The notes beneath the pieces were generated by a model. The model saw only the letters and a program-made list of their open reading frames with translations. It made no database searches and was not told the DNA's origin. Below are positions 2,032-40,040 of a stretch of 59,593 nt of DNA, in pieces. The position numbers were made by a program, and so were the translations under genes. Source of the DNA: Colwellia sp. (GTDB taxonomy: Bacteria; Pseudomonadota; Gammaproteobacteria; Enterobacterales; Alteromonadaceae); contig JALJPB010000007.1 in NCBI GenBank assembly GCA_022969175.1, positions 1 to 59,593 of the forward strand, in the 5' to 3' direction. Position 1 is the stretch's first letter. The number at the start of each line of letters is the position of its first letter.

Positions 2032-2035
2032 TATT

Positions 2036-2530
2036 ATGGACCCAATTACAGAATTAACAGAAAAGCTGACCAACCCTACAATTTCTGTAGACAATAAGTT
2101 GATTGAAATTTGCCAAAGAACTCATCAACTCATTGAAGGTGCTGACAGAATTAGCTTATGGAGTTTTTCCCAAGGTCTTAACAAAATCACTTCATTATTA
2201 TCTTTCGATACCAATTCTGGTCAATTTACTTCAGGGCAAGAATTATCTAGAGATGACTACACTGAATATTTTGATGCCATAATAAAAAATGAAGTCATTA
2301 ATGCGCCACGGGCACGAGATCACGTTTTTACTCAATGCTTTAATGAATCATATTTTGAGCCACTAAAGATATATTCATTACTTGATTTTATCTTGCATAA
2401 CGACTTCAAACCCATGGGAATAATATGCTGTGAGGGAGTCGGCAAAGTTAAGTACTGGTCAGGTGAAAATATTGAAACACTTAAACGTATAGCCAACATT
2501 AGTTCTTGTTGTTTTCAACAGGGAACTTAA
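2036..2530 (+). CDS. GAF-domain-like protein
   Basis: The reading frame is open back to 1901, but the first 135 bases lie inside the interspersed element, so the true start is the ATG at 2036 (MDPITELTEKL), 164 residues. The body, ICQRTHQLIEGADRISLWSF, then LLDFILHNDFKPMGIICCEG and a final helix ENIETLKRIANISSCCF, matches the shape of a GAF domain: a small-molecule sensor fold, here without an output domain. Two Cys pairs (IICCEG, SSCCFQ) are notable but are not a known motif. The promoter and ribosome site must lie within or at the edge of the element. Partner unknown. Confidence 0.65.
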   Translation: MDPITELTEKLTNPTISVDNKLIEICQRTHQLIEGADRISLWSFSQGLNKITSLLSFDTNSGQFTSGQELSRDDYTEYFDAIIKNEVINAPRARDHVFTQCFNESYFEPLKIYSLLDFILHNDFKPMGIICCEGVGKVKYWSGENIETLKRIANISSCCFQQGT

Positions 2531-2600
2531 ACACTAACTACGTTATCAAATGAGTTATAGCTCACCTCCATTGCTTTGAACGCCTCCTACACTTCATTTT

Positions 2601-4756: not shown

Positions 4757-4920
4757 AGAGATAGCTTCAATGTTAAATGAGTACTTTCCATCAGCTTAAC
4801 TAAATGACAAATATTTTGATGTACTACCTTGGTGCACTGCGAATAATTTTTTACCATGGTATGCTGCTCCTTATTCACCAATCAATTTCATTAAAGCAAT
4901 GACTTAACTAGGGGCATTAT

Positions 4921-8373: not shown

Positions 8374-8622
8374 AATGTATTTCTTTGTGTAAATAGGTAA
8401 TGGAACAGATTTTTCATACTGACAGAGCTCTCTGACTAAGCACAAGGCGAAATTAAATTTTAAATTAGTTAGCGTGTTTCGCAGTAAAGATTACCAATTG
8501 TTGTCAGATCGTACAATTACTTCACTTGATAATCTGAATTTGATCATTGAAATATTTTTACTACAATATATGAACAAAAACAAATTAATTGTGAATTATA
8601 TTATCAGCATAAGGATATTTAA

Positions 8623-8991
8623 ATGAGTGAATCATTATTTGACAAAATTGGTGGTGAAGGCGCAGTAGATGCAGCGGTCGACATTTTTTATCGTAAAGTA
8701 TTAAATGATGATTCCATTGCTCATTTTTTTGATGATACCGATATGGATGGACAAATAGCCAAACAAAAGAGTTTTTTAACCATGGCTTTTGGTGGGCCAA
8801 ACGAATATACCGGTACCGATATGAGAAAAGCCCATGCACCACTCGTTGAAAAAGGTCTCAATGAATCTCACTTTGGTGCGGTGGCAGGACACCTTCAAGC
8901 GACGTTACAAGAATTGGGCGTGCCTGAAGAATTAACCAATGAAGTGATGGCTATTGCCGGTAGTACTCATGATGATGTATTAGGTCTGTAG
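8623..8991 (+). CDS. glbN: Group 1 truncated haemoglobin
   Basis: 122 residues, the usual trHbN length. LFDKIGGEGAV and the Phe-Tyr pair of IFYRKV (Tyr23 at the B10 position, which stabilises bound ligand) are followed by FGGPNEYTG and the proximal haem-binding His71 in RKAHAPL. Such globins bind O2 and NO; several act as NO dioxygenases when a reductase supplies electrons. A ferredoxin-reductase gene starts 93 bp downstream on the same strand, an unusually suggestive partner. The ribosome site AAGGA lies before the ATG. The 249 bp upstream (8374-8622) are AT-rich and hold no gene. Confidence 0.93.
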   Translation: MSESLFDKIGGEGAVDAAVDIFYRKVLNDDSIAHFFDDTDMDGQIAKQKSFLTMAFGGPNEYTGTDMRKAHAPLVEKGLNESHFGAVAGHLQATLQELGVPEELTNEVMAIAGSTHDDVLGL

Positions 8992-9027
8992 TTTCAGCGC
9001 CAAACATCGCTCAAATTACTATTAATT

Positions 9028-9080
9028 AGCAAACTATTGATTAGAAACTATTTATTAGAAACTATAGGTTAGTAACTAAG
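9028..9080 (+). repeat. Degenerate 14-bp tandem repeat
   Basis: Three to four imperfect tandem units based on AGAAACTATTTATT (AGCAAACTATTGATT, AGAAACTATTTATT, AGAAACTATAGGTT, AGTAACTAAG) fill the gap between the globin stop and the reductase start. They could be protein-binding repeats or replication slippage. Confidence 0.6.
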
Positions 9081-9084
9081 TATT

Positions 9085-10092
9085 TTGATTTTTAATAATA
9101 TCAGCTATCAGGTCAAAAAAAACGAAAGTGTCTTGGAATGCTTACTTAGGTGTGAGCTAAAAATAGATTACTCTTGTAAAACAGGCAATTGCCAATCTTG
9201 CCTGCTTAAGTCAATAGCAGGCGACGTAGATAAAAAAGCACAAAAGGGATTAAAACCAACAGCTATTGAACAAGGATTTTTCCTCGCCTGTCAGCAGCAA
9301 GCTGAAGCTATTCAAAAAGCAGAATCAATTGACAATGAACTTATTTTTAGTCACGCCAGACTCGTTAATAAACAACTGTTTTCTAATGATATTTGTCAGT
9401 TAATTATTGAGCCGGTAAGTCCGCTCTATTATCATGCAGGTCAGTTTATTAACCTCAAAAACTCTCAAGGTATCGTCAGAAGCTATTCAATCGCTAATAT
9501 TCCAAGTGAACAACAATTAATTGAATTACATATTCATAAAAAAACCAACGGTGCGATGAGCCATTGGCTTTTCAATGAGTTTAATGTTGGTGATAATATT
9601 GATTTTCAAGGTCCAATTGGTGAATGTTTTTATACTTCAGAAAATAAAAATAAGCCAATGATACTTATTGGCACAGGAACTGGAGCCGCGCCATTAATTG
9701 GCATTGTAAGGGATGCATTAAAATCCGGCCATCAAGGTTTGATCTTGTTCTACCATGGAGCCAGAAATATTGAAGGGCTTTATTTACACGATATGTTATC
9801 TAATTTAGATAAAAGCCATTCGAATTTTAATTATCTGCCAAGCATTTCCCATAACGATGATTTACTATCAAACCTAGGATCGAATGATTCTGCAATAAAA
9901 ATTGTCGTCGGTCGCTGTAACGAAATCGCAATTAAGAAATTACAACCAACACCACAGACAATACTCTATTTATGTGGCAATCCAGAAATGGTTAATACTA
10001 CCCGAAAAAAAGCGTTTTTAGCCGGCATAGCATCAAAGAATATTTATATTGACCCCTTTGAATACAAAGATTTAAGGAAATCTGAAAGGTAA
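9085..10092 (+). CDS. [2Fe-2S] ferredoxin / NAD(P)H-flavin reductase fusion
   Basis: 335 residues in two parts. Residues 1-85 are a plant-type ferredoxin with cluster ligands Cys31, Cys36, Cys39 and Cys69. Residues 95-330 are an FNR-type reductase with FAD motif RSYSIAN, NAD(P) motif GTGTGAAPL and the C-terminal LCGNPEMV. This layout is that of oxygenase electron-transfer components (for example phenol or methane monooxygenase reductases). No oxygenase is nearby, and the truncated globin directly upstream is the likeliest electron acceptor (inference). The start is a TTG at 9085; an in-frame TAA at 9073 excludes anything further upstream, and no good ribosome site is visible. Confidence 0.88.
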   Translation: MIFNNISYQVKKNESVLECLLRCELKIDYSCKTGNCQSCLLKSIAGDVDKKAQKGLKPTAIEQGFFLACQQQAEAIQKAESIDNELIFSHARLVNKQLFSNDICQLIIEPVSPLYYHAGQFINLKNSQGIVRSYSIANIPSEQQLIELHIHKKTNGAMSHWLFNEFNVGDNIDFQGPIGECFYTSENKNKPMILIGTGTGAAPLIGIVRDALKSGHQGLILFYHGARNIEGLYLHDMLSNLDKSHSNFNYLPSISHNDDLLSNLGSNDSAIKIVVGRCNEIAIKKLQPTPQTILYLCGNPEMVNTTRKKAFLAGIASKNIYIDPFEYKDLRKSER

Positions 10093-10315
10093 TACATTTT
10101 TAATATCTGCTAAAAAACAAGTTCGCGAGTAATTCAATAGCATGGAAAAATTGATTCATCAAAAACGCTTGATTTATATAAATATCTAGACCTCTAACTT
10201 ACAGTTTCTCACATTTCTTCCACATTTTTTAAACAATACAGCGCTATTATGGCTTTCAATAAAGGGCATAATATCATCAATTTTTATCAATTCACGTTAG
10301 AAATAGGTAGGCACT

Positions 10316-10741
10316 ATGCCGATAAAATTGAAATGTATACTTGGTCTTTGTTCTTTACTTATTGGTGGGTGTAGTCAACTTCATCATATTCATATTGGTG
10401 ATATAGACCAATCACAGGGTACGTTAACTCCATTTACTATTGAGGTAAATGAACTGGGGTTTGATGTTGCTAGAACAGCAGAAATAGGAGCAGAAGTAGC
10501 AAAGTCTGCCTCGACCAGTGAAAACTTGGAGTTGGTGGCCTTGATACTAGCGATAAGTAATTTTGGCCCTAAAACAGGTAACCCTGTTTACAACGATGCT
10601 TATGCTGACCAGTTGATCTATGAAATTGGTAAAACGTGTGCAAGTCAAAAAATAACTGGATTAACGTCAGTACGTGAAGCAACCAAAGTCGGCCCAGTAA
10701 GTGGCGAGGTTGTACGTATTAAAGGTTACTGTATTAACTAA
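10316..10741 (+). CDS. Lipoprotein, first of three tandem paralogues
   Basis: 141 residues with a lipoprotein signal peptide ending LLIGGC (acylated Cys19). The function is unknown to me. The C-terminal half carries the pattern shared by the two following genes: AYADQLIYEIGKTC, about 30 residues, then RIKGYC. Two conserved Cys residues could form a disulfide in the periplasm. It is the longest of the three, with an extra Ala-rich helical stretch (ARTAEIGAEVAKSA). First gene of a probable three-gene operon, preceded by a 223-bp AT-rich gap in which I see no gene. Confidence 0.8.
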   Translation: MPIKLKCILGLCSLLIGGCSQLHHIHIGDIDQSQGTLTPFTIEVNELGFDVARTAEIGAEVAKSASTSENLELVALILAISNFGPKTGNPVYNDAYADQLIYEIGKTCASQKITGLTSVREATKVGPVSGEVVRIKGYCIN

Positions 10742-10757
10742 ATTTTAGGAGTTTTCC

Positions 10758-11063
10758 ATGTTGAGAAACACAATATCATATTCATTATTTGCACTTTTAC
10801 TGACTGGTTGTACGGGTTTAAATACCGTATCAATGACTCAAGTTCCAGCAAAAAGGGATAACATAATCACGACTAATTCATCTAGCTGGAATTTTATAGG
10901 AATAAATTTTAGCAATGCTTTTGCTGATCAAGCCATAGAAAATCTGAAAGCACAGTGCCCAACAGGAAAAATTGAAGGGGTATATACCAAGCACCAAACT
11001 ACCGGCTATATCCTTGTGTTTAAGAGAGAAATAATTGTATCTGCATACTGTAATGAGGTGTAG
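10758..11063 (+). CDS. Lipoprotein, second of three tandem paralogues
   Basis: 101 residues, signal peptide ending LLLTGC (Cys18). It carries the shared segment AFADQAIENLKAQCPTGKIEGV, then a terminal IIVSAYC. A TTTTAGGAG ribosome site lies 16 bp after the previous stop codon, so the genes are co-transcribed. The layout (lipobox, short linker, helix with DQ, Cys, beta segment, final Cys) resembles small TRL-like lipoproteins, but I am not sure of that assignment. Confidence 0.8.
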   Translation: MLRNTISYSLFALLLTGCTGLNTVSMTQVPAKRDNIITTNSSSWNFIGINFSNAFADQAIENLKAQCPTGKIEGVYTKHQTTGYILVFKREIIVSAYCNEV

Positions 11064-11065
11064 TG

Positions 11066-11377
11066 ATGAAAAAGCTATTTTTGTTGTTTTGGCCAGTAAT
11101 GCTTAGTGCATGCACAAGCAGTATTCATATGTCACAAATGAATGTTGCCAGTAATCATAGTGAATTTGAGAGTGACGAAGTTATTGAAATTGAAAAATCA
11201 CAAAAAATCATCCTCGGCTTTGTTTATGATACTAATTATGTTGATCAAGCTTATAACAAACTTTTACTTACATGCCCGAATGGAACATCGATGATTAATG
11301 TAGAGTATTTAACTAATCATGGATTTCTCAGTTGGACAGATAAAATACGAATTAAAGCGGTTTGCAAAAAGGCATAA
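11066..11377 (+). CDS. Lipoprotein, third of three tandem paralogues
   Basis: Start placed at the ATG at 11066 (GAGGTG ribosome site, 5-nt spacing) rather than the GTG at 11063 that overlaps the preceding stop. 103 residues, signal peptide ending VMLSAC. It shows the shared segment NYVDQAYNKLLLTCPNGTSM and a final RIKAVC, plus a more acidic linker (FESDEVIEIEKS). Function unknown. A strong perfect hairpin follows. Confidence 0.8.
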   Translation: MKKLFLLFWPVMLSACTSSIHMSQMNVASNHSEFESDEVIEIEKSQKIILGFVYDTNYVDQAYNKLLLTCPNGTSMINVEYLTNHGFLSWTDKIRIKAVCKKA

Positions 11378-11406
11378 GCAGACCACTGCATATTTCTAGT
11401 ATTATC

Positions 11407-11443
11407 AAGTAACATAACCACCATAATAGTGGTTATGTTACTT
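11407..11443. terminator. Strong bidirectional hairpin terminator
   Basis: A perfect 15-bp inverted repeat, AAGTAACATAACCAC (11407-11421) and GTGGTTATGTTACTT (11429-11443), with a 7-nt loop. It lies between the lipoprotein operon (+) and the HlyD gene (-), so it probably ends transcription from both sides. Confidence 0.75.
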
Positions 11444-11447
11444 AAGA

Positions 11448-12689
11448 TTAATTCCCCGAAAAGACCAGTACCTGTACTGGCAACAATAATGCCTGTAAAC
11501 GTAAGATAATCGCATGGACAAAGCCAACAGCATCAACCATATGGTAATAAATGAACTCTGACGTACCCAGCTCACCACTGGCTATTAACTCGTGATGATA
11601 ACTGTACGCATTAGCAAGGCACTTAGTTCCAGGGACGACACCATCAAGGCCACCTTCATATAACGGTTTCAGTAATACTGTCAAAGTACCTGGTTTAGCT
11701 CTGTCCTGAACATCAAGCAAAGTTTCATTGGTTCTCAATTGTCCGCTGGCTATTACATTTTGAATGCTGGCAATTTTCATCGGGATAATGGTGAATGGTT
11801 TGGACAAACAGGTGATTTCAGCATAAGTACCTACTTCTAGAACGCCAGCAGCTAACTGATTAAAACCCGCTTGCACACCTTCTTTTCCAGAAGCTAAGCC
11901 GTTAGTCGGCACTATGATACCCGCAGGACGAATCATCGGATTGACAAAATCTCCAGGTTGTAAGGTAAACTGCTGCAATTCACCATCAATATGTGCATAG
12001 ACTGTACGTTTACCTTCTTCAACAATGGCAGAATTTAATACTTCTGTCGCACTGGCTTTTTTTGCCGGTAATATGGTATCTATTGTCGCTTGTGCTATCG
12101 CTTGATTTGCCTTAGCTGCGCTTTGTCCTGCTTTATTTATCGCAACAGTATCAGCCAATTTTTGCACTTCACTGGCACTAATTAAATGTTGGCCCTGTAA
12201 CTGAAGTTTCTTTTTCCTGTCATATTCATTTTTAGCGCGCATATAGGCACTTTTAGCTTGTTCAACACTACTTTTGGCGACGTCAAGTTGAGCATAGGCG
12301 GTAGAAAACTCGGCCTCTACTTCTTTTATTTGCACTTCTGCTCTTTCAATTGCGGCCATTTGTGATTGATCATACATGCTAAAAATCGCCGTTCCGGCTT
12401 TTATTTGTTGATGATTCTTAACAAAAACATGCTGAACTCTGCCACTTTGTTCCGGTAATATTGATACGGTACGGAACAAGGGGCTAGCGTTGGTGGTTGA
12501 TGGGTGATAATAAAAAATCAAGGTTACTAGCGAAATCGTTAATATAATACAAGCTGATATTCCCCATCGTAGTTCATACCACATAGTAAAAAATGTAATC
12601 TCTTTCCCCCAACGTTTACCTTGACGGTATTTCCGAAATAAATAATCAGGCAATATGGTGAAAAGTGAACATAAAATAACTTCTAACAT
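11448..12689 (-). CDS. HlyD-family membrane fusion protein (YiaV/YibH-like)
   Basis: The frame is open to 12713, but the ATG at 12689 (MLEVILCSLF) has an excellent AAGGAGGAG ribosome site, giving 413 residues. There is one N-terminal membrane segment (SACIILTISLVTLIFYY), then a lipoyl-like half (ILPEQSGRVQHVFVKNHQQI), a long coiled coil rich in Ala, Glu and Lys (about residues 105-200), and the returning beta-barrel half. Such proteins bridge an inner-membrane pump to the outer membrane. No pump gene is adjacent. The upstream DUF3302-like gene ends 1 bp before this start, so the two form a coupled pair, like yiaW-yiaV in E. coli. Confidence 0.85.
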   Translation of the reverse strand: MLEVILCSLFTILPDYLFRKYRQGKRWGKEITFFTMWYELRWGISACIILTISLVTLIFYYHPSTTNASPLFRTVSILPEQSGRVQHVFVKNHQQIKAGTAIFSMYDQSQMAAIERAEVQIKEVEAEFSTAYAQLDVAKSSVEQAKSAYMRAKNEYDRKKKLQLQGQHLISASEVQKLADTVAINKAGQSAAKANQAIAQATIDTILPAKKASATEVLNSAIVEEGKRTVYAHIDGELQQFTLQPGDFVNPMIRPAGIIVPTNGLASGKEGVQAGFNQLAAGVLEVGTYAEITCLSKPFTIIPMKIASIQNVIASGQLRTNETLLDVQDRAKPGTLTVLLKPLYEGGLDGVVPGTKCLANAYSYHHELIASGELGTSEFIYYHMVDAVGFVHAIILRLQALLLPVQVLVFSGN

Positions 12690-12690
12690 G

Positions 12691-13068
12691 TTAGCACTCC
12701 TCCTTGGTATCAACTTTATCTACGACATCCGCTGCTAACTTAGCTTTTTCATTCTTAGCGATTATTGACAAAGATCGGGCAATAGATTTTAACGGTGATA
12801 AAAAATCTGGCAATTTAATTACCGCAACGACCAAAGCAGCCACCCAAAATACATTATTGTGAGTAAATAGTGCCAAGATAGTTAAAATTGAAATGAGTTG
12901 AATTTGTGTATGGTTTTTGCCATGGGCAATATGTTCAGGAACCGCGTGTAACTTAAAGTATAAAACGCCGCCAATAAGCACCATGACTATCAGGGTAATA
13001 GCGATGCCAATCATTAAAGGATCACCATCAGCTCCTGCCAAATAACTTGGTATATGTTCAGTTGTCAT
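12691..13068 (-). CDS. DUF3302-like small membrane protein (YiaW-like)
   Basis: 125 residues, two or three membrane helices: GIAITLIVMVLIGGVLYF, then ISILTILALFTHNNVFWVAAL. The middle segment LHAVPEHIAHGKNH followed by LFTH and FW matches my recollection of the DUF3302 pattern (LH..P..IA...NH ... LFTLH). It is translationally coupled to the HlyD-type gene, the same arrangement as in enterobacteria, which supports the assignment. Function unknown. The stretch 13069-13480 upstream contains no gene that I can see. Confidence 0.7.
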   Translation of the reverse strand: MTTEHIPSYLAGADGDPLMIGIAITLIVMVLIGGVLYFKLHAVPEHIAHGKNHTQIQLISILTILALFTHNNVFWVAALVVAVIKLPDFLSPLKSIARSLSIIAKNEKAKLAADVVDKVDTKEEC

Positions 13069-13480
13069 TAAATTGTCCTTTCTTTATTGTCATAAATACA
13101 CATCTTCTTTTAGCCTACTAATCAAATACCTTAGCATAATCCAGATCACAGTTAACAATTTTGACTATAGCTAAATTAATTCTACCTAAATTAAGGCGTT
13201 ATCATGCTCGAGTGTAGAATGTTTTAATAAAAAATGGAAACTTCATCACGGTCTAAATCTTTTGCTCATCTAACCAATAATAAGTAAATTGGTAAACAAA
13301 AAAATTTCACCTTTAATAAATTCCATTAATTAGACATTAGTTAATGTTGAGCTTTTTTTGTCGCTAGGCTGATGTTATGGGTTAATATGACAAAATAGTT
13401 GTAGCGAACATGAGTTCACTAGCATTCCCTCTTGTTGAACTGTTAGGGATTTAGTGAGATTACTCATCTTTGGAGTATTG

Positions 13481-13882
13481 ATGAAAAAAGTAATAGATAA
13501 ATTAGCTTGGCTTTATATTCGTGACGGTAAACTATTGAGTGCCCGTTCGAAAGATAAAAAACTTTTCTATATCCCTGGGGGTAAACGCGAAAAAGGCGAA
13601 TCAGATGAGGAAGCCCTTATACGCGAAATTAAAGAAGAAATATCAGTAGATTTAATTCCTAATTCAATTAAATATGCAGAAACATTTACCGCTCAAGCTG
13701 ATGGTAAAAATAGTGACATCATTGTTAAACTAACCTGCTATTTTGCTGACTTTCAAGGAAGTCTGTCTCCAGATGCAGAAATAGAAGAAATAGATTTCAT
13801 TGCTTATCATAACAAATCTCTTTGTTCTGCTGGCTCGATTAAAATTATGGATTGGCTTAACAGCCAAAATTTAATACAGTAA
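13481..13882 (+). CDS. Nudix hydrolase
   Basis: The frame extends to 13454, but GGAG lies 5 nt before the ATG at 13481, giving 133 residues. The Nudix box is present: GKREKGESDEEALIREIKEE fits G-x5-E-x7-REUxEE. The following Gly of the consensus is Ser here (EEISVDL). These enzymes cleave nucleoside diphosphates linked to another moiety; the substrate is unknown. No signal peptide. A VOC gene starts 20 bp downstream, probably in the same transcript. Confidence 0.88.
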   Translation: MKKVIDKLAWLYIRDGKLLSARSKDKKLFYIPGGKREKGESDEEALIREIKEEISVDLIPNSIKYAETFTAQADGKNSDIIVKLTCYFADFQGSLSPDAEIEEIDFIAYHNKSLCSAGSIKIMDWLNSQNLIQ

Positions 13883-13902
13883 ATAATAAATGAGGAGATA
13901 AA

Positions 13903-14289
13903 ATGTTCAGTCATATTATGATTGGTGCAAACGACGTTCAAGAATCAAAAGTATTTTATGATGCTATATTAGGTGCACTGGGCTATGAGCCTGGAGTAAC
14001 AGATGAAAAAGGCCGCTGCTTTTACTTTACTAAAAGTGGTGTTTTCGCCATCACTAAACCGATAAATAACGAACCAGCTTGTCATGGCAATGGCTCTACC
14101 ATAGGTTTTACCGCAAAAAACACCGAGCAAGCTGATGCTTGGCATGCGGCAGGTCTCGCCAATGGTGGTATTGCCTGTGAGAATCCACCTGGGGAGCGTG
14201 AAGGAGTAATTGGCAAGCTCTATCTTGCTTACCTACGCGATCCTTCTGGTAATAAAATATGCGCTCTGCATAGGTTGGGTTCTAAATAA
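13903..14289 (+). CDS. VOC family (glyoxalase-like) protein
   Basis: 128 residues. It begins with FSHIMIGANDVQESKVFYDAIL, the first beta-alpha-beta module with a metal-binding His. A second module follows, FTAKNTEQADAWHAAGLANGG, ending in YLRDPSGNKICALHRL. Members are metal-dependent glyoxalases, dioxygenases or antibiotic-binding proteins; which one cannot be told. AGGAG precedes the ATG. It follows the Nudix gene in a likely two-gene operon. The 262 bp after it hold no gene that I trust. Confidence 0.88.
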   Translation: MFSHIMIGANDVQESKVFYDAILGALGYEPGVTDEKGRCFYFTKSGVFAITKPINNEPACHGNGSTIGFTAKNTEQADAWHAAGLANGGIACENPPGEREGVIGKLYLAYLRDPSGNKICALHRLGSK

Positions 14290-14551
14290 AGTCGGAAACT
14301 GGAATTATTATGTTTAGGTACGAAAATATCTTTCAAGAAATTTAAGTTACTTTGATCTAGAGCGGACACGGTTGAACAACCACATTGAGTTAACAGTCTA
14401 GATAACGGACGTTCCCCATAGATTGAAACATATATTTTTTTGATGGAAGTTTTTGTCATTCAGGCTGACAGACAACTAAGCCAGCTAAACGGTCATCGAA
14501 ACTTTAAACCAAAAGGACAGCCACAAACCGGACATTAGAACCATAACATTG

Positions 14552-15475
14552 CTAAGGAATTATAATAATACAACAGCCACTAAGTTGGCTAATATTAACT
14601 TGTTGGATAGTGAGCCAGGATTGAGCGGCCTTATTTGCAGCAGGACGGATAACTAGATACTCAATATTCAGGTTATCCATCATGGTTTTAATTTCATCGT
14701 TAGGTTCATCTTCCCATATAAAGAGTAAATCACTACTGTTTTCTGACAAACTAGATAGTTTCGCCCATTGCCTGCTGTTAGGAATTTCATTGGGCTCCCA
14801 GTGTAAAGAGGTGCCCGTTAATTGATAGCCTTGTTTAAAATACTGATAAACAGGGTGTGAAAAAACCAATGTTTTACTTTGAAGTTTTGTTATTTGCTCT
14901 TGGTAGCCAAGATCTAAAGCAACTAGTTCGCTAATAAGCTTAATAGCCTTGAGTTTGATCGATTGGCTGTGCTCAGGATATCGCTTGGTTAATACCTTTA
15001 TAATGTTCTGAGCTTGCTTTTTAGCTAACTTCATATCCATCCAAGTAGTAATAGCCAACTGATCATGGGAATGATCACCCTCAGGTCCGTGACTATGACT
15101 TAAGCTCGTGTCTAATTGTATAAGTTCACTTTCAAGCCCAGCCAAGGTATCAATTAATTTATTGTCCGCTATTGATATTTTAGTTAACCAAGGAGAGTAA
15201 TTATCGCCATTCAAGACCAACAAATCTGCTTGTTGTAAAAGTAAAATATCATCAATATTGGGTTGCCATTGAGCGGGATCAATTCCTTTGGGGATTGGTA
15301 AGTTTACTTGAGCAAAATCCCCAGCTAATTGTTGAGTAAAATAATACAGTGGATAATTAACGGTAGTAATTGAAATTTTATTTTGCTCTGTTTGTAGTTG
15401 AGTTTGCTGTTTACCACATGAAATCATGCAAAAACTAACGAATAATAAAACAACAAAAATTTTCATTTTTAACAT
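14552..15475 (-). CDS. ZnuA-like metal-binding lipoprotein of an ABC system
   Basis: 307 residues. The signal peptide ends in FCMISC (lipid-anchored). The body follows the ZnuA/TroA cluster-9 solute-binding fold: TTVNYPLYYFTQQLAG at the start, DLLVLNGDNYSPWL, then a His-rich loop HSHGPEGDHSHDQ typical of zinc binders, and LVFSHPVYQYFKQGY. The final stretch ends in an odd CCIIIIP. It is the last gene of a four-gene operon, 9 nt after the permease stop, with an AAGG ribosome site. Known ZnuA proteins work with ABC-3 permeases (ZnuB); here the neighbour is FtsX-like, which is unusual. Confidence 0.85.
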   Translation of the reverse strand: MLKMKIFVVLLFVSFCMISCGKQQTQLQTEQNKISITTVNYPLYYFTQQLAGDFAQVNLPIPKGIDPAQWQPNIDDILLLQQADLLVLNGDNYSPWLTKISIADNKLIDTLAGLESELIQLDTSLSHSHGPEGDHSHDQLAITTWMDMKLAKKQAQNIIKVLTKRYPEHSQSIKLKAIKLISELVALDLGYQEQITKLQSKTLVFSHPVYQYFKQGYQLTGTSLHWEPNEIPNSRQWAKLSSLSENSSDLLFIWEDEPNDEIKTMMDNLNIEYLVIRPAANKAAQSWLTIQQVNISQLSGCCIIIIP

Positions 15476-32203: not shown

Positions 32204-35200
32204 ATGACTCTCATCAATAAAAAATTAATGAGTCTGTCCATGTTAATGGTGTTAACCACATCATTAACGGTACATGCGGGTGAGCAAAACCCCAATAAAA
32301 CTTTTTCAAAAGTGAAAACTGTAAAAACTGTAAAAACGAATAAAGTAACTCAAAAAGTTTCTTTCTCAAAAAAATCAGTAAAAAATAACATCACTAAAAC
32401 GAATACTTCACACTTTAGTGATGCGACTCAAGTTTGTGCCATTGAAGACAACGGTCAAGACTGGTCAAAGTTACAAAAAAAACTTAGTAAAGAACTCAAA
32501 CGCTCTGCCGACAAAGCTAGAAAAAATCAACTGGTAAGTCGCAGCAGTAGATCCCTCTCTTCTGCTATACAGCAAGCTGATATAGGTGAAGGAAATGGCA
32601 TCGATGGCCGTTATTATATTCCTGTTGTATTCCATCTATATGGTGAGCTATTTACTTGTGATAATGCCGAAGAAAGTTGTTTAACCGATGAAAAAGTCAT
32701 TGATGCCCTAGAGCGTTTAAATGAAGATTTTCGTGGCACCAATACCCAAGATGGTCCTATCGCAGAACAATTTCAAGCCATTCGTGAAAGCCTAAATGTT
32801 GAATTTGTTTTAGCGAAAAAAACACCAAGCGGCGAAGTAACCAATGGTATTGTTCGCCATCTTAGTGAACAAGCCGGTTACGGTAACGGCAGTGGTGCTG
32901 ATGAGCAAATTGCTGCTGATGCATGGGACAACTTTAAATACATGAACGTTTATATTATGAACGATTTGTATGATGATGGCAGTACGAATAACTCAGGTGT
33001 TGCTTGGTACCCTGATCTATCAATGACGCAAGCTAATACCTCTCGTGTTGTTTATAACGGTTGGTATGTCGGTGACAACACCGATGAAAACTTCCGTTCG
33101 GTATTAACTCACGAATTCGGCCATTGGTTAAACTTACCTCATACTTTTGCCACAGAAAGTTGTTCACTAGAAAATGAAACCTTTTGTGGTTTAACCGGTG
33201 ATGGAAGTTGTGATACTCCACAAATGTCATTATCTACCGACATGTATGACAATTCATTAAATTGTCTTGGTAAGCCAACCAATACTGAAAACTTCATGCA
33301 TTACACCAGTAATTATGCAATGTTTACTCAAGATCAAGTAGCGCGTATGACCGCTGCTCTACACGGCGATGCCCGAGGTAGCCTTTGGTCAAATGAAAAC
33401 TTAGTAGCCACAGGTTTAGGCGAATTTACCAGTAATGCAGATCATCCTTGGGATGGTATTTCAGGTATTGATACTATGCCTGAAGGTGAAATGTTAGCGA
33501 GTTTTGATAACCTTTCAGCAGACAAAGATGCGATTGATACCTTTGTTATAGATGCACCTAATGGTACTCAAGCATTAGCATTTTACTTATCAGGTTTTTC
33601 TCAAGATCCTGATATGTATGTTGCAGCTGGCGAAGCACCTGAATTATTAGCAGACGGTACTTGGAAAACTGATTACACCTCTTTCCAAGCCACAGCTACA
33701 CCAGAGTTTATTGGTATTTTAGGCCCTAAAAACAATGAATCTTATCATGCTGCAGTTCATGCGTTTAGTGCGTACGACAATGCTAATTTGCAAGTTTTAG
33801 CGGTTGAAGATCCATTACTAACTGAAGGTAGCAAACGCTACCACGTGATTAAACAGGGTGGCTTATGGTCTACAGCCGGCGTTTCACCTAAAAACTTCAA
33901 GTTTACTATTCCAGAAAGTGCTGAAAAAGTGGTAATTGTTTTAGCCGGTGCTTACGGTGGTGATCCTGATATGTATATTAGCCAAAATATGCCTGTTGAT
34001 ATGGAAACAGCTGACTGTAAACCGTTTAGCGCAGCTAAATTAGCAGAGTATTGTGAGTTTTCTCAAGGTGGTGAATTTAACATCTTAATCGACCCATTTG
34101 CAGAATATTGGGACGCCGAGTTACATGTATATTACGAAACGAGAGATGTAAGTAACCAACCTCCTTTTGCCAATACTAAGCCAACGTATCAAGCAATGAT
34201 TGACCATGAGGTTCATTTTAAAGGTGACTCATCAGTTGATGTTGATGGTGAAATTGTCAGCCAACTTTGGAATTTTGGTAATGGTGATACCAGTGAAGAA
34301 CTTAATCCAGTCTATGTTTACACCCAATTAGGTGATTACACTGCGAGCTTAACAGTTACTGATAACCAAGGGGTTAGCAGCACAACTACAACCTTAGTTA
34401 GCATTACGCTTTATAACCCAAATGATGCTGAATTGTGCGACGGTTGTAGCCGTGTTTATTTAACTGAAGAAATTGGTTTATCTGCTGAGAAAGGCAGCGA
34501 GCCAAGAACTTATAAATTTAGTGTACCTGATGCAGCATCACTTGTTGTTTTCGAAATTGTTGCTGGTTCAAGTGGCGATCCCGATTTACATGTAAGCCAA
34601 AATAAACCGGTATCAATTGAAGAGTTCAGCTGTCGTCCTTGGGAAGGACCTGGCGCATTAGAAAGTTGTCAATTTACTGAAGGTGGCATTTTTAACGTCA
34701 TGATTGATCCCTTTTTGGATTACAGCGATGTTACTTTCAAAGCCTACTACGACATTAGAGATGATGCCGACCACTCTCTACCCAATGAATTACCTATCGC
34801 CCATGCCGGTAGTAATTATTTAGCAATAACCAACAACACCATTACGTTAAGCAGCGCTGAATCAAGTGATGAAGATGGCACAATTGTAAGTTACCTTTGG
34901 GATTTAGGTGATGGCACAAGTAGTACATTAGAGAACCCTGAACATAGTTACTCTAACGTTGGCGAATTTACCATTATCTTAACTGTTACCGATAACGACG
35001 GTGCAAGTGCATCTGCTACCGCTAAAGTTATCGTTAACCCTGCAGGTGATATGGATGGCGACGGTGATGTTGACAGGCTTGATATTCGCGCTTTTGGTTT
35101 AGCTCTTCGTCGTGGACAAACGTTAGATGAATCATTTGATCTAAATGGTGACGGTATCATTAATTCACGCGATGTTAGATTAATGAGAGCTCTTTGCTCT

Positions 35201-35854
35201 TATGAGCGTTGTAGCTCAATTGCACCTCCTCCAGAACCACCAACAGCCCTAGCTTCGGGTACTAGTAATGTGGATCAATTTAGTGAGTTGTCTTTTAGCA
35301 GCGCCGGTTCAAATGATCGTTACGGCTATATTGTTAGCTACTCATGGAATTTTGGCGACGGTTCAAGCAGCACTTTGGCTAACCCAAGTCATGCATATCA
35401 AGAAGTTGGTCAATACTCTGCGGTATTAACCGTTACTGACAACGATGGTATGACAGCAACCGATACCGTCGTAGTTAATGTAAATTATGGTGCATTAGTT
35501 GATAGCTGTGCAACGCAAGATGAATTTGTCGATGGCAGAGCTGATGCAGGTCAGGTTATTTGCTTAGGCGCACAGCAAAGTAGAAGTTTTTCTATTCCTG
35601 ACGTTAACAGCCATCAACGTATTTCAATAACAATTGCTCATGGCTCTGGAGATGTTGCCTTGTATTACCGTAATTCAAGCTGGCCATCAACTGATACCTA
35701 TGACGCTGCATCTACAGAGGCGAATAACCAAGCTTGTATTACCCTTGAGCTTAACGACGAACTCAATTACTGGAGTTACATCCAAATTGTTGGCGCTGAA
35801 AACGCGACACTAGTAGTTGATTTTGATACTCAAGGCTGTCGCCCTGTTCAATAA
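32204..35854 (+). CDS. Secreted M43-type metalloprotease with PPC, PKD and dockerin-like domains
   Basis: 1216 residues. Order: signal peptide (to about 25), Lys-rich propeptide, zinc metalloprotease with HEFGHWLNLPH (His303, Glu304, His307, His313) and Met-turn NFMHY as in pappalysin-type M43 enzymes, PPC-like domains (near 425-530, 545-650), PKD (650-740), PPC-like (745-850), PKD (860-945), a dockerin-like module at 948-1003, another PKD (1010-1095) and a final beta domain with Cys pairs. The dockerin-like module (DMDGDGDVDRLD ... DLNGDGIINSRD) has both Ca-binding loops. It is unusual in being internal, and it ends in a CSYERC Cys pair. The next gene encodes a cohesin-like protein. Confidence 0.93.
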   Translation: MTLINKKLMSLSMLMVLTTSLTVHAGEQNPNKTFSKVKTVKTVKTNKVTQKVSFSKKSVKNNITKTNTSHFSDATQVCAIEDNGQDWSKLQKKLSKELKRSADKARKNQLVSRSSRSLSSAIQQADIGEGNGIDGRYYIPVVFHLYGELFTCDNAEESCLTDEKVIDALERLNEDFRGTNTQDGPIAEQFQAIRESLNVEFVLAKKTPSGEVTNGIVRHLSEQAGYGNGSGADEQIAADAWDNFKYMNVYIMNDLYDDGSTNNSGVAWYPDLSMTQANTSRVVYNGWYVGDNTDENFRSVLTHEFGHWLNLPHTFATESCSLENETFCGLTGDGSCDTPQMSLSTDMYDNSLNCLGKPTNTENFMHYTSNYAMFTQDQVARMTAALHGDARGSLWSNENLVATGLGEFTSNADHPWDGISGIDTMPEGEMLASFDNLSADKDAIDTFVIDAPNGTQALAFYLSGFSQDPDMYVAAGEAPELLADGTWKTDYTSFQATATPEFIGILGPKNNESYHAAVHAFSAYDNANLQVLAVEDPLLTEGSKRYHVIKQGGLWSTAGVSPKNFKFTIPESAEKVVIVLAGAYGGDPDMYISQNMPVDMETADCKPFSAAKLAEYCEFSQGGEFNILIDPFAEYWDAELHVYYETRDVSNQPPFANTKPTYQAMIDHEVHFKGDSSVDVDGEIVSQLWNFGNGDTSEELNPVYVYTQLGDYTASLTVTDNQGVSSTTTTLVSITLYNPNDAELCDGCSRVYLTEEIGLSAEKGSEPRTYKFSVPDAASLVVFEIVAGSSGDPDLHVSQNKPVSIEEFSCRPWEGPGALESCQFTEGGIFNVMIDPFLDYSDVTFKAYYDIRDDADHSLPNELPIAHAGSNYLAITNNTITLSSAESSDEDGTIVSYLWDLGDGTSSTLENPEHSYSNVGEFTIILTVTDNDGASASATAKVIVNPAGDMDGDGDVDRLDIRAFGLALRRGQTLDESFDLNGDGIINSRDVRLMRALCSYERCSSIAPPPEPPTALASGTSNVDQFSELSFSSAGSNDRYGYIVSYSWNFGDGSSSTLANPSHAYQEVGQYSAVLTVTDNDGMTATDTVVVNVNYGALVDSCATQDEFVDGRADAGQVICLGAQQSRSFSIPDVNSHQRISITIAHGSGDVALYYRNSSWPSTDTYDAASTEANNQACITLELNDELNYWSYIQIVGAENATLVVDFDTQGCRPVQ

Positions 35855-35890
35855 ATACTTTAAATAGACGACAAGAATAAACCATAAAAA

Positions 35891-35914
35891 GAAGCCAGTG
35901 GTTTAGCTGGCTTC
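35891..35914 (+). terminator. Hairpin after the M43 protease gene
   Basis: GAAGCCAG and CTGGCTTC pair perfectly (8 bp, loop 8 nt), 36 bp after the stop; only a weak T-rich tail follows. Some read-through to the next gene is likely. Confidence 0.55.
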
Positions 35915-35969
35915 ATATAAAATTTTAATATAAATCAATAATAAAACTAAATAATATAAAGGAAAAATC

Positions 35970-36527
35970 ATGAAAAAATTTATTGCAATGCTTACTCTAC
36001 TTGTTGGCTTTAATGCTACTGCTGGTTTACTAACAATTGATCTTTCAGCTGATGAAGTTTCAGTAGGCGATTCTGTGTTGGTTACTATTAGTGCGAGTGA
36101 GTTTGAAGAAAGCTTTGACTTTGGCTTTAACTTTAACTTTGACGATTCAGGGATGATTTACCAAGAAAGTTCATTAACTAGTGGTCTAGCTTTAAGTATA
36201 GATACCCCTATGTTTGATGGCCTAGAAGTAGTAACTGAAGATTTTGGCTTAAATTTAACTTTTTTATCGGATGATGACTCAATATTTGCAGCAGGTAACT
36301 TTGTACTGGCTAGCTTTTATTTGATTGCTGATGCCACAGGCTCATTTGATTTCTCAATCACAGATCTTTATGACGATTGGACTTGGGTTGATCACACTGT
36401 CGATTTTTCTGGTGCAAGTTCAGTTAACGTAAGTGCAGGTTCAACTTCTGTTCCAGAGCCGAGCTCTGCGGCATTATTATTGTTAGCCGGTTTTGCTTTT
36501 GCTAGCAGCCGTCGTAAAAAACAATAA
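35970..36527 (+). CDS. PEP-CTERM protein with cohesin-like domain
   Basis: 185 residues. Signal peptide to about 18 (VGFNATAG). The body, residues 20-150, begins LTIDLSADEVSVGDSVLVTI and continues FDFGFNFNFDDSGMIYQESS, then GNFVLASFYLIADATGSFDF. This is the beta-sandwich pattern of cohesin domains (a VGD strand, an F.F.FDP-like strand, and a late L.S..F.A...G strand). The C-terminus is a complete PEP-CTERM sorting signal: VPEPSS at 161-166, a hydrophobic helix, and SSRRKKQ. Such tails are processed by exosortase and lead to surface or matrix placement. It sits between two dockerin-bearing proteases on the same strand, which suggests it is their anchor. The cohesin assignment is by eye. Confidence 0.85.
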   Translation: MKKFIAMLTLLVGFNATAGLLTIDLSADEVSVGDSVLVTISASEFEESFDFGFNFNFDDSGMIYQESSLTSGLALSIDTPMFDGLEVVTEDFGLNLTFLSDDDSIFAAGNFVLASFYLIADATGSFDFSITDLYDDWTWVDHTVDFSGASSVNVSAGSTSVPEPSSAALLLLAGFAFASSRRKKQ

Positions 36528-36599
36528 CTTGTCGAATAAAGAATCAAGTTAACGATTAAATCTATAAAGAATATAGCAATAAACGGATGTATTGAGTTA

Positions 36600-36631
36600 A
36601 CCGAGAAAGTTGTCTGCGCAGCTTTCTCGGT
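36600..36631 (+). terminator. Hairpin after PEP-CTERM gene
   Basis: ACCGAGAAAGTTG pairs with CAGCTTTCTCGGT (13 bp with one G-U pair, loop 6 nt). No T-run follows. Confidence 0.5.
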
Positions 36632-36692
36632 ACATGGATGTTTACCTATCTAAGTAACTATAAAAATTAACAAAACTTACAACGGTCTAACT

Positions 36693-39600
36693 ATGAAATT
36701 ATTAACAAAAAAATCACTACTTGCTAGCGCAATGTTGCTGGCGATGAATGTCACCAATGTACAAGCTGCTGACATGTGTGGCGAGAAAACACTACCTCGC
36801 CAAGGCGAAGTACCGGCAAACGAAACACACTGTATTACTGATTACGGTCACTACTTATATGTCGATGTGCCTTATGATAATAGCGATGTCACTATTACTA
36901 CTTCTGGTGGTACTTTTACTGGCTCTGATGCCGATATTAGTCTTTACCCAGGGACTTGGTGGGGCGACGGAGATATTGAAGAAAGTAGCTCTACCCCTGA
37001 TACCAATGATGAGAGTATTTCATTTGTTTCGCGTGCTGGTAAACGTTACTTCCACATTGGCGGTAATATCCAAGAAACCAGTATAATTGTTAACATTAGC
37101 GGTGGTGATATTCCAGTGCCACCACCACCAATGGGTGATTATATTATTTACCCAACAAGTACCAATGTTGATGTACCTGCTGCCCCTATCAGCTCTAAAG
37201 CACAATATGGCGCTACTATTGCCAGTATTTTAGCGGCAAGCTATAGTGACTTTGCAGCAATTGCTGGCGCTGATGAAGACCCGATTACTGATGTTGCTGC
37301 AGCGATTCACTACCTTGGCGATGCTGACGATCTAACTGACCCAGATCTAAACCAATTATTATACTTTTTAGCTTCTTATAAATATTACGCACCAGCGATG
37401 ACTGATGTCGAAGCACAAGCATTAAGTACGGCTCTGTTAGCTGTTACGCAAATGACTGACTTTGCGACCTCTGCTGGTAGTGTTATTCAAGAAGGTTATG
37501 CTTATGCGTTAACCAACTTACGCCGCGACGCTGGGGCATTATTGTTTAAGGATCATTTACCGCACTTATTAGGTCTTATTCAATATTATTCTCAGCAAAG
37601 CAACCCATTCTCTTTATCTAATGCTGGCGATACTACCATGGCATTAATGGGTTCTATTTCTGATGCTGCCTATTATGGCGACTCTGCAGTTAAAGCCGCT
37701 TATAACGAAAATATGTTGGATGTATTATCGGTTATGCGCTCATTTGTATTTTTAGGTGAAACTTCCCTTGATTTACGCTGGTCTGCAGAAGACGATATAA
37801 AATGGATCATGCCTCATTCTTTCAACGCTATGGGTAGAATTTCTACAATTGCTAGTGATGAAGCAAAAGCACGTTTTGATAGCACTATTTTAGAAGCTCA
37901 TGGCAAAGTAATTACTGATATCTCTGAAGAAACCGCCAGCATTATTGTAACTAAAAACTACTTAGAAAATGCCGGACGTAGCTGTGAAGAAGGTGATGCT
38001 TTATTTGGTAGTTGTATTGTTCCGCCCCAAATAGAAGATATTTTAACGGTAACTCATGCCTGTACAGATAACATAACAATTCGTGCACAAGGCTCAATTA
38101 GTCAAGCCACACTTGATCAGTCATGTGCTGATATGGCATTGCAAGAAACTCAATTTCATGATTTCTTTGATACATCAGGAACTCCAGTAGCTGGTGACTT
38201 AAATGATCATATTGAAGTCATTGCCTTTGCCAGCCCTGACGACTATGAAAAGTATGCCGGTGAATTTTTCGGTATATCTACCGACAATGGCGGTATGTAT
38301 CTAGAAGGTACACCAACTAATGCAGGTAACCAAGCACGCTTTATTGCTATGCAATGCCCTGACTCTTGGGTAGGTTATTCATGTCAATATGAAGATCAAG
38401 TTTACAACCTAAGACATGAATTTACTCATTACCTTGATGGTCGTTATGTTAAAGCGGGCTCATATGGTTCATTCGACTTTAATACGGCTTGGGCTGAAGG
38501 TATGGCTGAGTATATGTCTATGGGTCAAGAACATACCCGCACTTTAAATACGCTAGAAGGTAAAACTATTCCACCGCTATATAATATTGTCTTCATGAAT
38601 TATGATTATGACGATTTGTATCAATGGGGCTACTTTGCCATGCGTTATTTAGGTGAAGAACATAAAGACGAGATAGAGCTTATTGTTGATGCATTACAAG
38701 CCGGTAATAATGACGCTTACGTTGCAGCACTAAAGGGTGCAGTTGAACGGACAGACTCAGGTTTTGAAGCATTTGTTTTAGCTAACTCTGAAGCAGTTGC
38801 ACCCGTAACTGAAATCATTCCTGCTGCAGATACTATCGGCAGCTGTGATTTAGTTCAGCAATATGCTCGATATTTTGATGCCAGTAAAATAAACTTTACT
38901 TTTACTAATACCACCAATGTGCCTGTTTCACTGTTTTGGGTAAATAGTAATACCGGTGAAGCAAATTTTGCCAATAAATACGCAACACTCAATGAAGGCG
39001 AATCTTACACTTCAAGTAACTGGAGAAATGACGATCGATTAATGCTAAGTGATAGCAATATGAATTGTTTAGGTGTTGCGGTAATGACTGAAGATGAAAA
39101 TACTTTCACTATCGATGAAGCGTTAGTTCAAGATGTTGTTGTAGAAATCATTCCTGAAATCAACCAAATGGGCAGCTGTGACTTAGCAAAACCTCATCTA
39201 ATTGCTAATGAGTCACATGCATTTACTATCACCAATACTTCTGATACACCAGTGCGTTTGTTTAGAATTGACAATACCACAGGTAAAATCATCACCACTA
39301 GTGGTGCTGATGCCTTTACTCATGGTTATGGCACATTAGCGCCAGGTGCTAGCTATAGCAATGATGTTTGGTATGGTGATCGCCGCTTAATGGTGACTGA
39401 TACCAGCTTAAACTGTTTAAGTGTTGGCGTATTAAATAATCAAGTTGCTAGCTTTACCGTTGATGAAGCTATAGTAGTGAATGCTGCTGCACCTGAAGTT
39501 ATTCCAGCAGCAAATAATATTGGCAGCTGTGATTTAAAAGCGCCACATTTAGTCGGCCCTTTTGAAAGTGACTTTTCATTCGTTAACAACTCAGATCATA

Positions 39601-40040
39601 CCGTTCGTGTTTATCGTGTTGACAATATAACGGGTGAGTTAAACCAAAGCTTTGGCTTTACCACCTTAGCAAAAGGTGAAACTTACGACAGCATTGAAAC
39701 ATGGAAATGGTTTGGTAACCGCCGTGCGGCAATAACTGATGAAAGTGATAACTGTGCTGGCGTTGCGGTAATGACAGAAGAAGAGACGAGTAATGATTAC
39801 GAAATTACCAATGATCTTTTTGATACCGGTGAACCTGATGTTGTAACAGGCGATATGGATGGCGATGGCGATGTTGATAGAAACGACATTCGAGCGTTTG
39901 GTTTAGCACTTCGCCGCGGTGAAGATCTTCATATTTCATTTGATTTAAATGAAGATGGTATTATCAACTCTCGTGATGTTAGGTTAATGAGAGGCATTTG
40001 TACCTATGACCGATGTAGAGCTGAGCCTACACCTCAATAG
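36693..40040 (+). CDS. Secreted M9-type collagenase with three VHL-like repeats and a dockerin-like domain
   Basis: 1115 residues. Signal peptide ends NVQAADMC; an N-terminal PPC-like domain (25-150) precedes the M9 activator and peptidase. The zinc site is HEFTHYLDGRY (His575, Glu576, His579) with Glu602 in WAEGMAEY, spaced as in clostridial ColG. Then come three tandem domains of about 110 residues (near 705, 816, 935), each starting IGSCDL or MGSCDL and containing F.N.....V.L.....TG, like the VHL beta domain. Residues 1053-1108 are a dockerin-like module (DMDGDGDVDRND ... DLNEDGIINSRD) with 46 of 56 residues identical to that of the M43 protease. It would digest collagen-like proteins outside the cell and could dock onto the cohesin-like PEP-CTERM protein. 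Confidence 0.94.
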   Translation: MKLLTKKSLLASAMLLAMNVTNVQAADMCGEKTLPRQGEVPANETHCITDYGHYLYVDVPYDNSDVTITTSGGTFTGSDADISLYPGTWWGDGDIEESSSTPDTNDESISFVSRAGKRYFHIGGNIQETSIIVNISGGDIPVPPPPMGDYIIYPTSTNVDVPAAPISSKAQYGATIASILAASYSDFAAIAGADEDPITDVAAAIHYLGDADDLTDPDLNQLLYFLASYKYYAPAMTDVEAQALSTALLAVTQMTDFATSAGSVIQEGYAYALTNLRRDAGALLFKDHLPHLLGLIQYYSQQSNPFSLSNAGDTTMALMGSISDAAYYGDSAVKAAYNENMLDVLSVMRSFVFLGETSLDLRWSAEDDIKWIMPHSFNAMGRISTIASDEAKARFDSTILEAHGKVITDISEETASIIVTKNYLENAGRSCEEGDALFGSCIVPPQIEDILTVTHACTDNITIRAQGSISQATLDQSCADMALQETQFHDFFDTSGTPVAGDLNDHIEVIAFASPDDYEKYAGEFFGISTDNGGMYLEGTPTNAGNQARFIAMQCPDSWVGYSCQYEDQVYNLRHEFTHYLDGRYVKAGSYGSFDFNTAWAEGMAEYMSMGQEHTRTLNTLEGKTIPPLYNIVFMNYDYDDLYQWGYFAMRYLGEEHKDEIELIVDALQAGNNDAYVAALKGAVERTDSGFEAFVLANSEAVAPVTEIIPAADTIGSCDLVQQYARYFDASKINFTFTNTTNVPVSLFWVNSNTGEANFANKYATLNEGESYTSSNWRNDDRLMLSDSNMNCLGVAVMTEDENTFTIDEALVQDVVVEIIPEINQMGSCDLAKPHLIANESHAFTITNTSDTPVRLFRIDNTTGKIITTSGADAFTHGYGTLAPGASYSNDVWYGDRRLMVTDTSLNCLSVGVLNNQVASFTVDEAIVVNAAAPEVIPAANNIGSCDLKAPHLVGPFESDFSFVNNSDHTVRVYRVDNITGELNQSFGFTTLAKGETYDSIETWKWFGNRRAAITDESDNCAGVAVMTEEETSNDYEITNDLFDTGEPDVVTGDMDGDGDVDRNDIRAFGLALRRGEDLHISFDLNEDGIINSRDVRLMRGICTYDRCRAEPTPQ

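What the first reader, a model, noticed from the sequence alone, without database searches (positions are those of the whole stretch)
32204..40040. Possible surface-anchored protease complex built on a dockerin-cohesin-PEP-CTERM trio
Three consecutive same-strand genes encode an M43-type protease with a dockerin-like module (residues 948-1003), a PEP-CTERM protein whose body reads as a cohesin domain, and an M9-type collagenase with a dockerin-like module (1053-1108). The two dockerin-like modules are identical at 46 of 56 residues, with both Ca-binding loops intact, although the enzymes are otherwise unrelated. That is what one expects if both must bind one partner. Dockerin-cohesin pairing is established for cellulosomes of anaerobes. 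Use of a PEP-CTERM (exosortase-sorted) cohesin to hold proteases in an aerobic marine gammaproteobacterium would be a different arrangement that I do not know to be described.
Basis: partly seen in the sequence, partly recalled or inferred. Interest (0 to 1): 0.95.

Follow-up and report, generated by a model that had tools for sequence, protein, structure and literature searches.

The report
Surface socket for plug-bearing secreted enzymes
In a Colwellia-like marine bacterium, a small protein with a predicted cohesin (socket) fold and a tail predicted to sort it to the cell surface is encoded between genes for two proteases, predicted to be secreted, that carry matching dockerin (plug) modules, so it likely holds those enzymes at the surface, and the same plug-and-socket gene pair recurs across its bacterial family beside enzymes of DNA-, protein- and seaweed-digesting families.

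The parts
32204..35854 (+). M43 (pappalysin-type) metalloprotease, 1216 aa, with signal-peptide-like N-terminus, PKD and PPC domains; zinc site HEFGHWLNLPH
32897..33361 (+). M43 catalytic domain (residues 232-386)
35045..35212 (+). Dockerin of the M43 protease (residues 948-1003), internal, followed by PKD and PPC
35891..35914 (.). Hairpin between M43 and cohesin genes; listed as terminator-like on the - strand only
35970..36527 (+). PEP-CTERM cohesin protein, 185 aa, the proposed surface dock
36027..36440 (+). Predicted cohesin body (residues 20-157)
36450..36524 (+). PEP-CTERM sorting tail (residues 161-185: PEP motif, hydrophobic stretch, basic end)
36600..36631 (.). Hairpin ACCGAGAAAG...CTTTCTCGGT between cohesin and M9 genes, read by eye; not listed by the terminator scan
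36693..40040 (+). M9 (collagenase-type) metalloprotease, 1115 aa, with signal-peptide-like N-terminus; zinc site HEFTH
38034..38774 (+). M9 catalytic domain (residues 448-694)
39849..40016 (+). C-terminal dockerin of the M9 protease (residues 1053-1108)

Best explanation
The small PEP-CTERM protein, whose body is predicted to be a cohesin, likely serves as a one-site surface dock that would bind the calcium-loop dockerins of the M43 and M9 proteases encoded on either side of it and so would keep these enzymes, predicted to be secreted, at the cell surface. Steps: (1) all three proteins begin with a signal-peptide-like segment and would cross the inner membrane by Sec (inferred from sequence); (2) exosortase would cut the PEP-CTERM tail and pass the cohesin to the cell exterior (proposed for the family, inferred here; exosortase genes are present); (3) each protease would dock through its dockerin, 1:1, so M43 and M9 would share or compete for cohesin molecules (inferred); (4) the nuclease elsewhere in the genome would use its own, second cohesin (inferred from adjacency and divergence). 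Shown directly: gene order and its conservation, dockerin and cohesin sequence relationships, exosortase genes, linkage statistics. Predicted: the folds.
Against: No binding assay or complex prediction. 15 of 62 sampled dockerins have no cohesin next door (9 of 53 C-terminal, 6 of 9 internal); the window's M43 dockerin is internal. In genome G009 none of three sampled dockerins adjoins a cohesin although it has an exosortase. G251 has the cohesin but no exosortase hit. The cohesin also tracks the nuclease catalytic domain (r 0.45), as linked genes do, so only the partial correlation speaks for partnership. The window protein itself misses PF00963. Within-species matching of M43 and M9 dockerins is not significant (11 of 120 permutations as good). 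Where PEP-CTERM proteins finally lodge is not settled.
Confidence: 0.75

Rival explanations
1. The cohesin and dockerins bind, but the dock sits in the exopolysaccharide matrix or on shed vesicles, so the enzymes are held in the biofilm rather than on the cell.
For: Both exosortase genes have polysaccharide-type neighbours (glycosyltransferases on both sides of one; a sugar nucleotidyl transferase beside the other), and PEP-CTERM was described as exopolysaccharide-associated (PMC1569441, passages). The commonest dockerin cargo is an Exo_endo_phos nuclease with lamin-tail domain, like ExeM, which is needed for normal biofilm formation in Shewanella (PMC6085458, passages).
Against: Nuclease orthologues without a dockerin include 5 of 24 with a transmembrane-type tail, which fits cell-bound function.
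Confidence: 0.17
2. The small protein is an Ig-fold chaperone, inhibitor or structural partner of the enzymes and does not bind the dockerins; the dockerins are calcium-stabilised end caps.
Against: Linkage follows the dockerin and not the enzyme: nucleases without a dockerin do not have it (0 of 24), and dockerin divergence follows the cohesin better than its own catalytic domain.
Confidence: 0.08
3. A true multi-enzyme complex in which M43 and M9 sit together on one scaffold, cellulosome-like.
For: Two or more dockerin enzymes lie beside one cohesin here and at other loci (L141, L142, L146, L122).
Against: The window's cohesin protein is long enough for one cohesin body only (185 aa), as are the relatives (about 160-220 aa). 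PF00963 finds no multi-cohesin protein in the genome, but it also misses these cohesins and the genome is 85% complete.
Confidence: 0.06

Closest known systems
ScaE of Ruminococcus flavefaciens (sortase-anchored cohesin)
   Same: A surface-anchoring cohesin fixed by a C-terminal sorting signal; a putative cysteine peptidase binds it through an X-dockerin (PMC12484212, passages).
   Different: LPXTG and sortase in a Gram-positive wall, and part of a large cellulosome; here PEP-CTERM and exosortase in a Gram-negative, no scaffoldin seen, cargo encoded next door.
OlpA/OlpC cohesins of Clostridium thermocellum
   Different: SLH anchoring and cellulases (recalled).
Non-cellulosomal cohesin/dockerin modules (Peer et al. 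2009; Clostridium perfringens NagJ/NagH)
   Same: Cohesin-dockerin modules outside cellulosomes; NagJ cohesin is among the hits.
   Different: Their function outside cellulosomes was called not known (PMC5244752, passages; Peer 2009 itself not held). No PEP-CTERM cohesin in what I could search.
Dockerin repeats on long-type ulvan lyases
   [quoted passage not shown] 2016, not read); that these come from alteromonads is recalled. So a dockerin on a marine polysaccharidase is not new.
   Different: That paper's text does not contain 'cohesin'; here a partner gene is proposed. BNR_4, in 7 of 40 dockerin proteins, may be this enzyme type (recalled, not tested).
ExeM nuclease with GlyGly-CTERM tail
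   Same: A nuclease of the same domain make-up, found at the membrane, with a C-terminal anchor (PMC6085458, passages).
   Different: There the anchor is a tail on the enzyme (its deletion did not free ExeM from the membrane fraction); here the enzyme carries a dockerin and a second protein carries the sorting tail.
PEP-CTERM/exosortase sorting (Haft 2006)
   Same: Tripartite tail, exosortase, exopolysaccharide genes; Colwellia psychrerythraea 34H PEP-CTERM proteins are discussed (PMC1569441, passages).
   Different: That paper's main text contains neither 'cohesin' nor 'dockerin'; here a receptor role is proposed for a PEP-CTERM protein.

Membership tests
Cohesin domain | Cohesin beta-sandwich fold | tested here: met
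   AF2 model; first 40 Foldseek and first 41 VIA-align rows are cohesins or cohesin-bearing chains
Cohesin domain | Sequence-profile relationship to known cohesins | tested here: met
   Family profile vs PDB sequences E 2.7e-12; 31 of 41 relatives hit PF00963 at E<=10, 22 of 49 family members at E<=1. The window protein alone does not
Cohesin domain | Binds a dockerin | not testable with these tools
   No complex prediction or assay available
Dockerin type I | Two calcium-loop-helix repeats with intact acidic ligands | tested here: met
   Invariant or nearly invariant ligand columns in both repeats
Dockerin type I | PF00404 match over cut-off | tested here: inconclusive
   M43 dockerin over the cut-off (26.0 vs 22.9 bits), M9 dockerin below it (16.5); 26 of 40 scanned dockerin proteins hit at E<=0.001
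Dockerin type I | Dockerin fold | tested here: inconclusive
   Top 24 Foldseek rows all dockerins but best E 0.048; model pLDDT 78
PEP-CTERM/exosortase substrate | PEP motif, hydrophobic stretch, basic end at the C-terminus, after a signal-peptide-like N-terminus | tested here: met
   TIGR02595 27.1 bits vs 16; N-terminus MKKFIAMLTLLVGFNATA read
PEP-CTERM/exosortase substrate | Exosortase in the same genome | tested here: met
   Two PF09721 matches over the cut-off, E 4.8e-71 and 1.2e-42
PEP-CTERM/exosortase substrate | Tail processed and protein surface-exposed | not testable with these tools
   Needs fractionation
Cellulosome | Multi-cohesin scaffoldin | tested here: inconclusive
   No PF00963 match in the genome, but PF00963 also misses the cohesins found here and the genome is 85% complete; the two cohesin proteins are long enough for one body each
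Cellulosome | Dockerin-bearing cellulases | tested here: not met
   The three dockerin matches found in this incomplete genome are on M43, M9 and an Exo_endo_phos nuclease

The most novel reading that the evidence does not exclude
Marine Gammaproteobacteria of one large family run a plug-and-socket surface display system: exosortase-sorted, single-cohesin proteins act as dedicated docks for dockerin-tagged DNases, proteases and seaweed polysaccharidases, taking the place of the enzyme's own membrane tail. This joins cellulosome chemistry to exosortase sorting and gives PEP-CTERM proteins a concrete receptor function.
Probability: 0.7. Interest if true: 0.88.

Novelty: new variant of a known kind. 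Interest (0 to 1): 0.82.

Why it matters
Most PEP-CTERM proteins have no known role (recalled), and the role of cohesin-dockerin modules outside cellulosomes has been called not known (PMC5244752, passages). Here both questions meet in a small testable system: the partners are gene neighbours and short domains that can be expressed, mixed with and without calcium, and knocked out. It would also name a likely partner for the dockerins already noted on marine enzymes such as long-type ulvan lyases (PMC11101340, passage). It would mean that a large group of marine polymer degraders, 168 of 395 sampled genomes, holds DNases, proteases and algal-polysaccharide enzymes on a replaceable dock, which bears on how they keep digestion products and shape biofilms. 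It could also offer new Gram-negative surface-display pairs.

Tried and rejected
PF00963 against the own genome gave nothing and PF00404 found only 1 of the 3 dockerins, so alignment profiles were used. I asked whether the M43 and M9 dockerins of one species co-vary: 11 of 120 label permutations did as well, not significant. I asked whether the arginine after the first calcium loop marks cohesin-paired dockerins: 29 of 47 versus 7 of 15, p 0.37, rejected; the same script's patterns for the second loop and for the acidic ligands were badly written and their output is discarded. First neighbour counts used a crude sorting-tail pattern that missed variants; replaced by a cohesin-body profile with signal peptide and tail removed. 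A full-length profile also picked up other PEP-CTERM proteins, probably through the tail, so body-only counts are reported. Outside the family the dockerin profile is rare and weak: 13 of the 16 matching genomes among 369 of the class lie outside it, and 2 of 12 among 398 of the phylum, one of them already seen in the class; 6 of those 13 class loci still have a cohesin-like frame beside the dockerin, one of them only at E 0.0014. On re-checking, the 13th cohesin (L214) proved weak and 594 bases away, so 12 of 16 is the firm count.

Rows dropped: of 41 homologues none; the Pfam scan of dockerin enzymes used 39 of the 62 sampled frames plus the genome's own nuclease because of the size limit, and shows 25 of its 36 families; some of those 39 have no cohesin neighbour. 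The co-divergence test used 45 of 68 pairs, those with a nuclease domain; the two reruns without close relatives give correlations only, no permutations. The 40 nuclease loci were picked by me from the list as having no dockerin row beside them, spread over genera. Genome lists were copied by hand into; totals matched (168 and 261).

Full report
Observation. The window holds three consecutive + strand genes: a 1216-residue M43 metalloprotease (32204-35854), a 185-residue PEP-CTERM protein (35970-36527) and a 1115-residue M9 metalloprotease (36693-40040). The dockerin-like modules (residues 948-1003 and 1053-1108) are identical at 46 of 56 residues and are the only significantly similar part of the two enzymes (BLASTP E 2e-19, next 0.31). 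Pfam Dockerin_1 accepts the M43 module (26.0 bits, cut-off 22.9) but scores the M9 module below its cut-off (16.5).

Are the modules dockerins? In 28 diverse relatives the main ligand columns of both calcium loops and a CX4C pair at the C-terminal end are invariant or nearly so; CX4C is in 62 of 62 sampled modules, although some weaker ones found later lack it. The AF2 model of the M9 module (pLDDT 78) matches dockerins in its top 24 Foldseek rows, weakly (best E 0.048, probability 0.99), before calmodulins. Profile search of PDB sequences gives dockerins first (E 9e-8) but EF-hand proteins too.

Own genome (4.97 Mb, 198 contigs, 85% complete). Two exosortases over the cut-off; one lies between glycosyltransferase genes, the other beside a sugar nucleotidyl transferase gene. 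There are 24 PEP-CTERM sites over the cut-off. A third dockerin ends an Exo_endo_phos nuclease on contig C29, and 84 bases further on begins a second PEP-CTERM cohesin gene of 171 residues. With a body-only cohesin profile exactly these two of the 24 sites score (E 2e-42 and 5e-39; next best 0.19). So the three dockerins found sit beside the only two PEP-CTERM cohesins found.

Conservation. One scan of named genomes gave seven relatives, six Colwellia and one MAG labelled Psychrobiaceae. In 7 of 7 an orthologue of the M43 protein (65-74% identical over its length) with a dockerin lies directly upstream; in four the M9 orthologue (81-83%) with a dockerin lies directly downstream; in two (L037, L038) other genes stand there, and in one (L033) the stored stretch ends too early to tell.

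Family-wide test. The dockerin profile finds matches in 168 of 395 genomes of the family, 37 of 52 genera. I fetched 60 loci from 52 genomes, chosen by the dockerin alone and for spread over genera. They hold 62 dockerin frames; 47 adjoin, on the same strand, a frame with a cohesin body, and 46 of the 47 cohesin frames there adjoin an intact dockerin frame (the 47th, L127, lies beside a dockerin frame with an in-frame stop). With the starting profile alone, before iteration, the count is 34 of 62 at E<=1e-3. Linkage is stronger for C-terminal dockerins (44 of 53) than for internal ones (3 of 9). Against this, genome G009 has three sampled dockerins and none adjoins a cohesin. Of 49 cohesin proteins (47 of these plus the window's and the C29 one) 35 hit the PEP-CTERM model PF07589 at E<=1; several others end in variants such as VPAPA or VSAPA, judged by eye.

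Cargo. Among 40 dockerin proteins scanned, 18 hit Exo_endo_phos, 17 the lamin-tail domain, 9 Endonuclease_1, 7 BNR_4, 5 porphyranase domains, 3 M43 and 1 GH98: families for extracellular DNA, protein and seaweed polysaccharide. No cellulase family is among the 25 of 36 families shown.

Same-enzyme control. From the nuclease search of 147 family genomes I took 40 loci that had no dockerin row beside them. Sixteen nevertheless end in a dockerin, some divergent; 12 of these have a cohesin frame starting within 60 bases of the nuclease's end (E 2e-9 or better), a 13th (L214) has a weak one (E 0.006) 594 bases on. Of the 24 without a dockerin none has one (Fisher 3.3e-7 with 12, 4.7e-8 with 13). 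Five of the 24 were classed as ending in a transmembrane tail, and a sixth (L192) looks so by eye. S. oneidensis ExeM carries a GlyGly-CTERM type anchor, though deleting it did not free the enzyme from the membrane fraction (PMC6085458, passages). In this enzyme the dockerin thus stands where relatives may have a membrane tail, which fits an anchoring role.

Co-divergence. In 45 nuclease pairs, dockerin distances follow cohesin distances (rank r 0.43) better than the distances of the catalytic domain in the same polypeptide (0.24). The cohesin also follows the catalytic domain (0.45), as linked genes do; with the catalytic domain held constant the dockerin-cohesin correlation is 0.37, matched by 0 of 2000 permutations. 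It stays at 0.33-0.35 without close relatives and 0.38 (0 of 2000) with the 43 CX4C dockerins alone. Linkage alone does not easily explain this; physical partnership does.

Exosortase. It is found in 157 of 168 dockerin genomes and 104 of 227 others (Fisher p 1e-25, not corrected for relatedness). Of 47 cohesin-linked dockerins 46 are in genomes with an exosortase over the cut-off; the exception is G251. The other three sampled dockerin genomes without one (G076, G185, and G230 with only a sub-threshold hit) have no cohesin beside the dockerin.

Mechanism. Each cohesin protein is long enough for one cohesin, so one enzyme per molecule is expected. In the window the M43 and M9 dockerins are alike enough to share one dock, while the nuclease dockerin (about 50% identical to them) has its own. 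I infer Sec export, exosortase processing and calcium-dependent docking. Final location, cell surface or matrix, is open. Hairpins between the genes leave open whether the trio is one transcript.

What is known. No held paper contains both PEP-CTERM and dockerin or PEP-CTERM and cohesin; [quoted passage not shown] Dockerin with Colwellia gave three papers: in two I saw that Colwellia only appears in an abbreviation list, the third (rotifers) was seen as a listing. Dockerin with alteromonad gave four, three listed: passages show a note that long-type ulvan lyases carry a type II dockerin repeat (PMC11101340) and two irrelevant mentions. So dockerins on marine enzymes have been noticed; a cohesin partner is not mentioned there. 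The library is open-licence PMC only, so subscription papers could be missed. The nearest known arrangement is the sortase-anchored ScaE cohesin, to which a putative cysteine peptidase docks (PMC12484212, passages).

Verdict. It is a new variant of a known kind.

Noticed in passing
L006 (own genome, contig C29): 1-2283: A second dockerin enzyme (Exo_endo_phos nuclease) followed directly by its own PEP-CTERM cohesin in the window's genome.
   Followed up: yes
L122 (unnamed relative): 1955-15160: Cluster of four dockerin enzymes with two PEP-CTERM cohesin genes (one found only with the full-length profile), as if several enzymes share few docks.
   Followed up: partly
L159, L160, L162 (other families of the class): A cohesin-like protein (PEP-CTERM-type tail in L159 and L160) lies upstream of a very large open frame (over 1800 aa) whose dockerin is near its start in the stretch held: a reversed arrangement, perhaps a giant surface protein docked at one end.
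   Followed up: partly
L175, L176, L187, L196, L209: Nucleases ending in a divergent, weakly scoring dockerin without the CX4C pair, also beside a cohesin frame; maybe a separate specificity class.
   Followed up: partly
L117: 5794-6972 (-): A 393-residue protein with two tandem dockerins (263-325, 332-393) beside one cohesin.
   Followed up: no
window 35891-35914 and 36600-36631: Hairpins between M43, cohesin and M9 genes; may set different expression levels of dock and cargo.
   Followed up: no
L095, L096 (genus g19, no exosortase over the cut-off): Dockerin-like modules persist, internal, without a cohesin neighbour; what they bind, if anything, is unknown.
   Followed up: no
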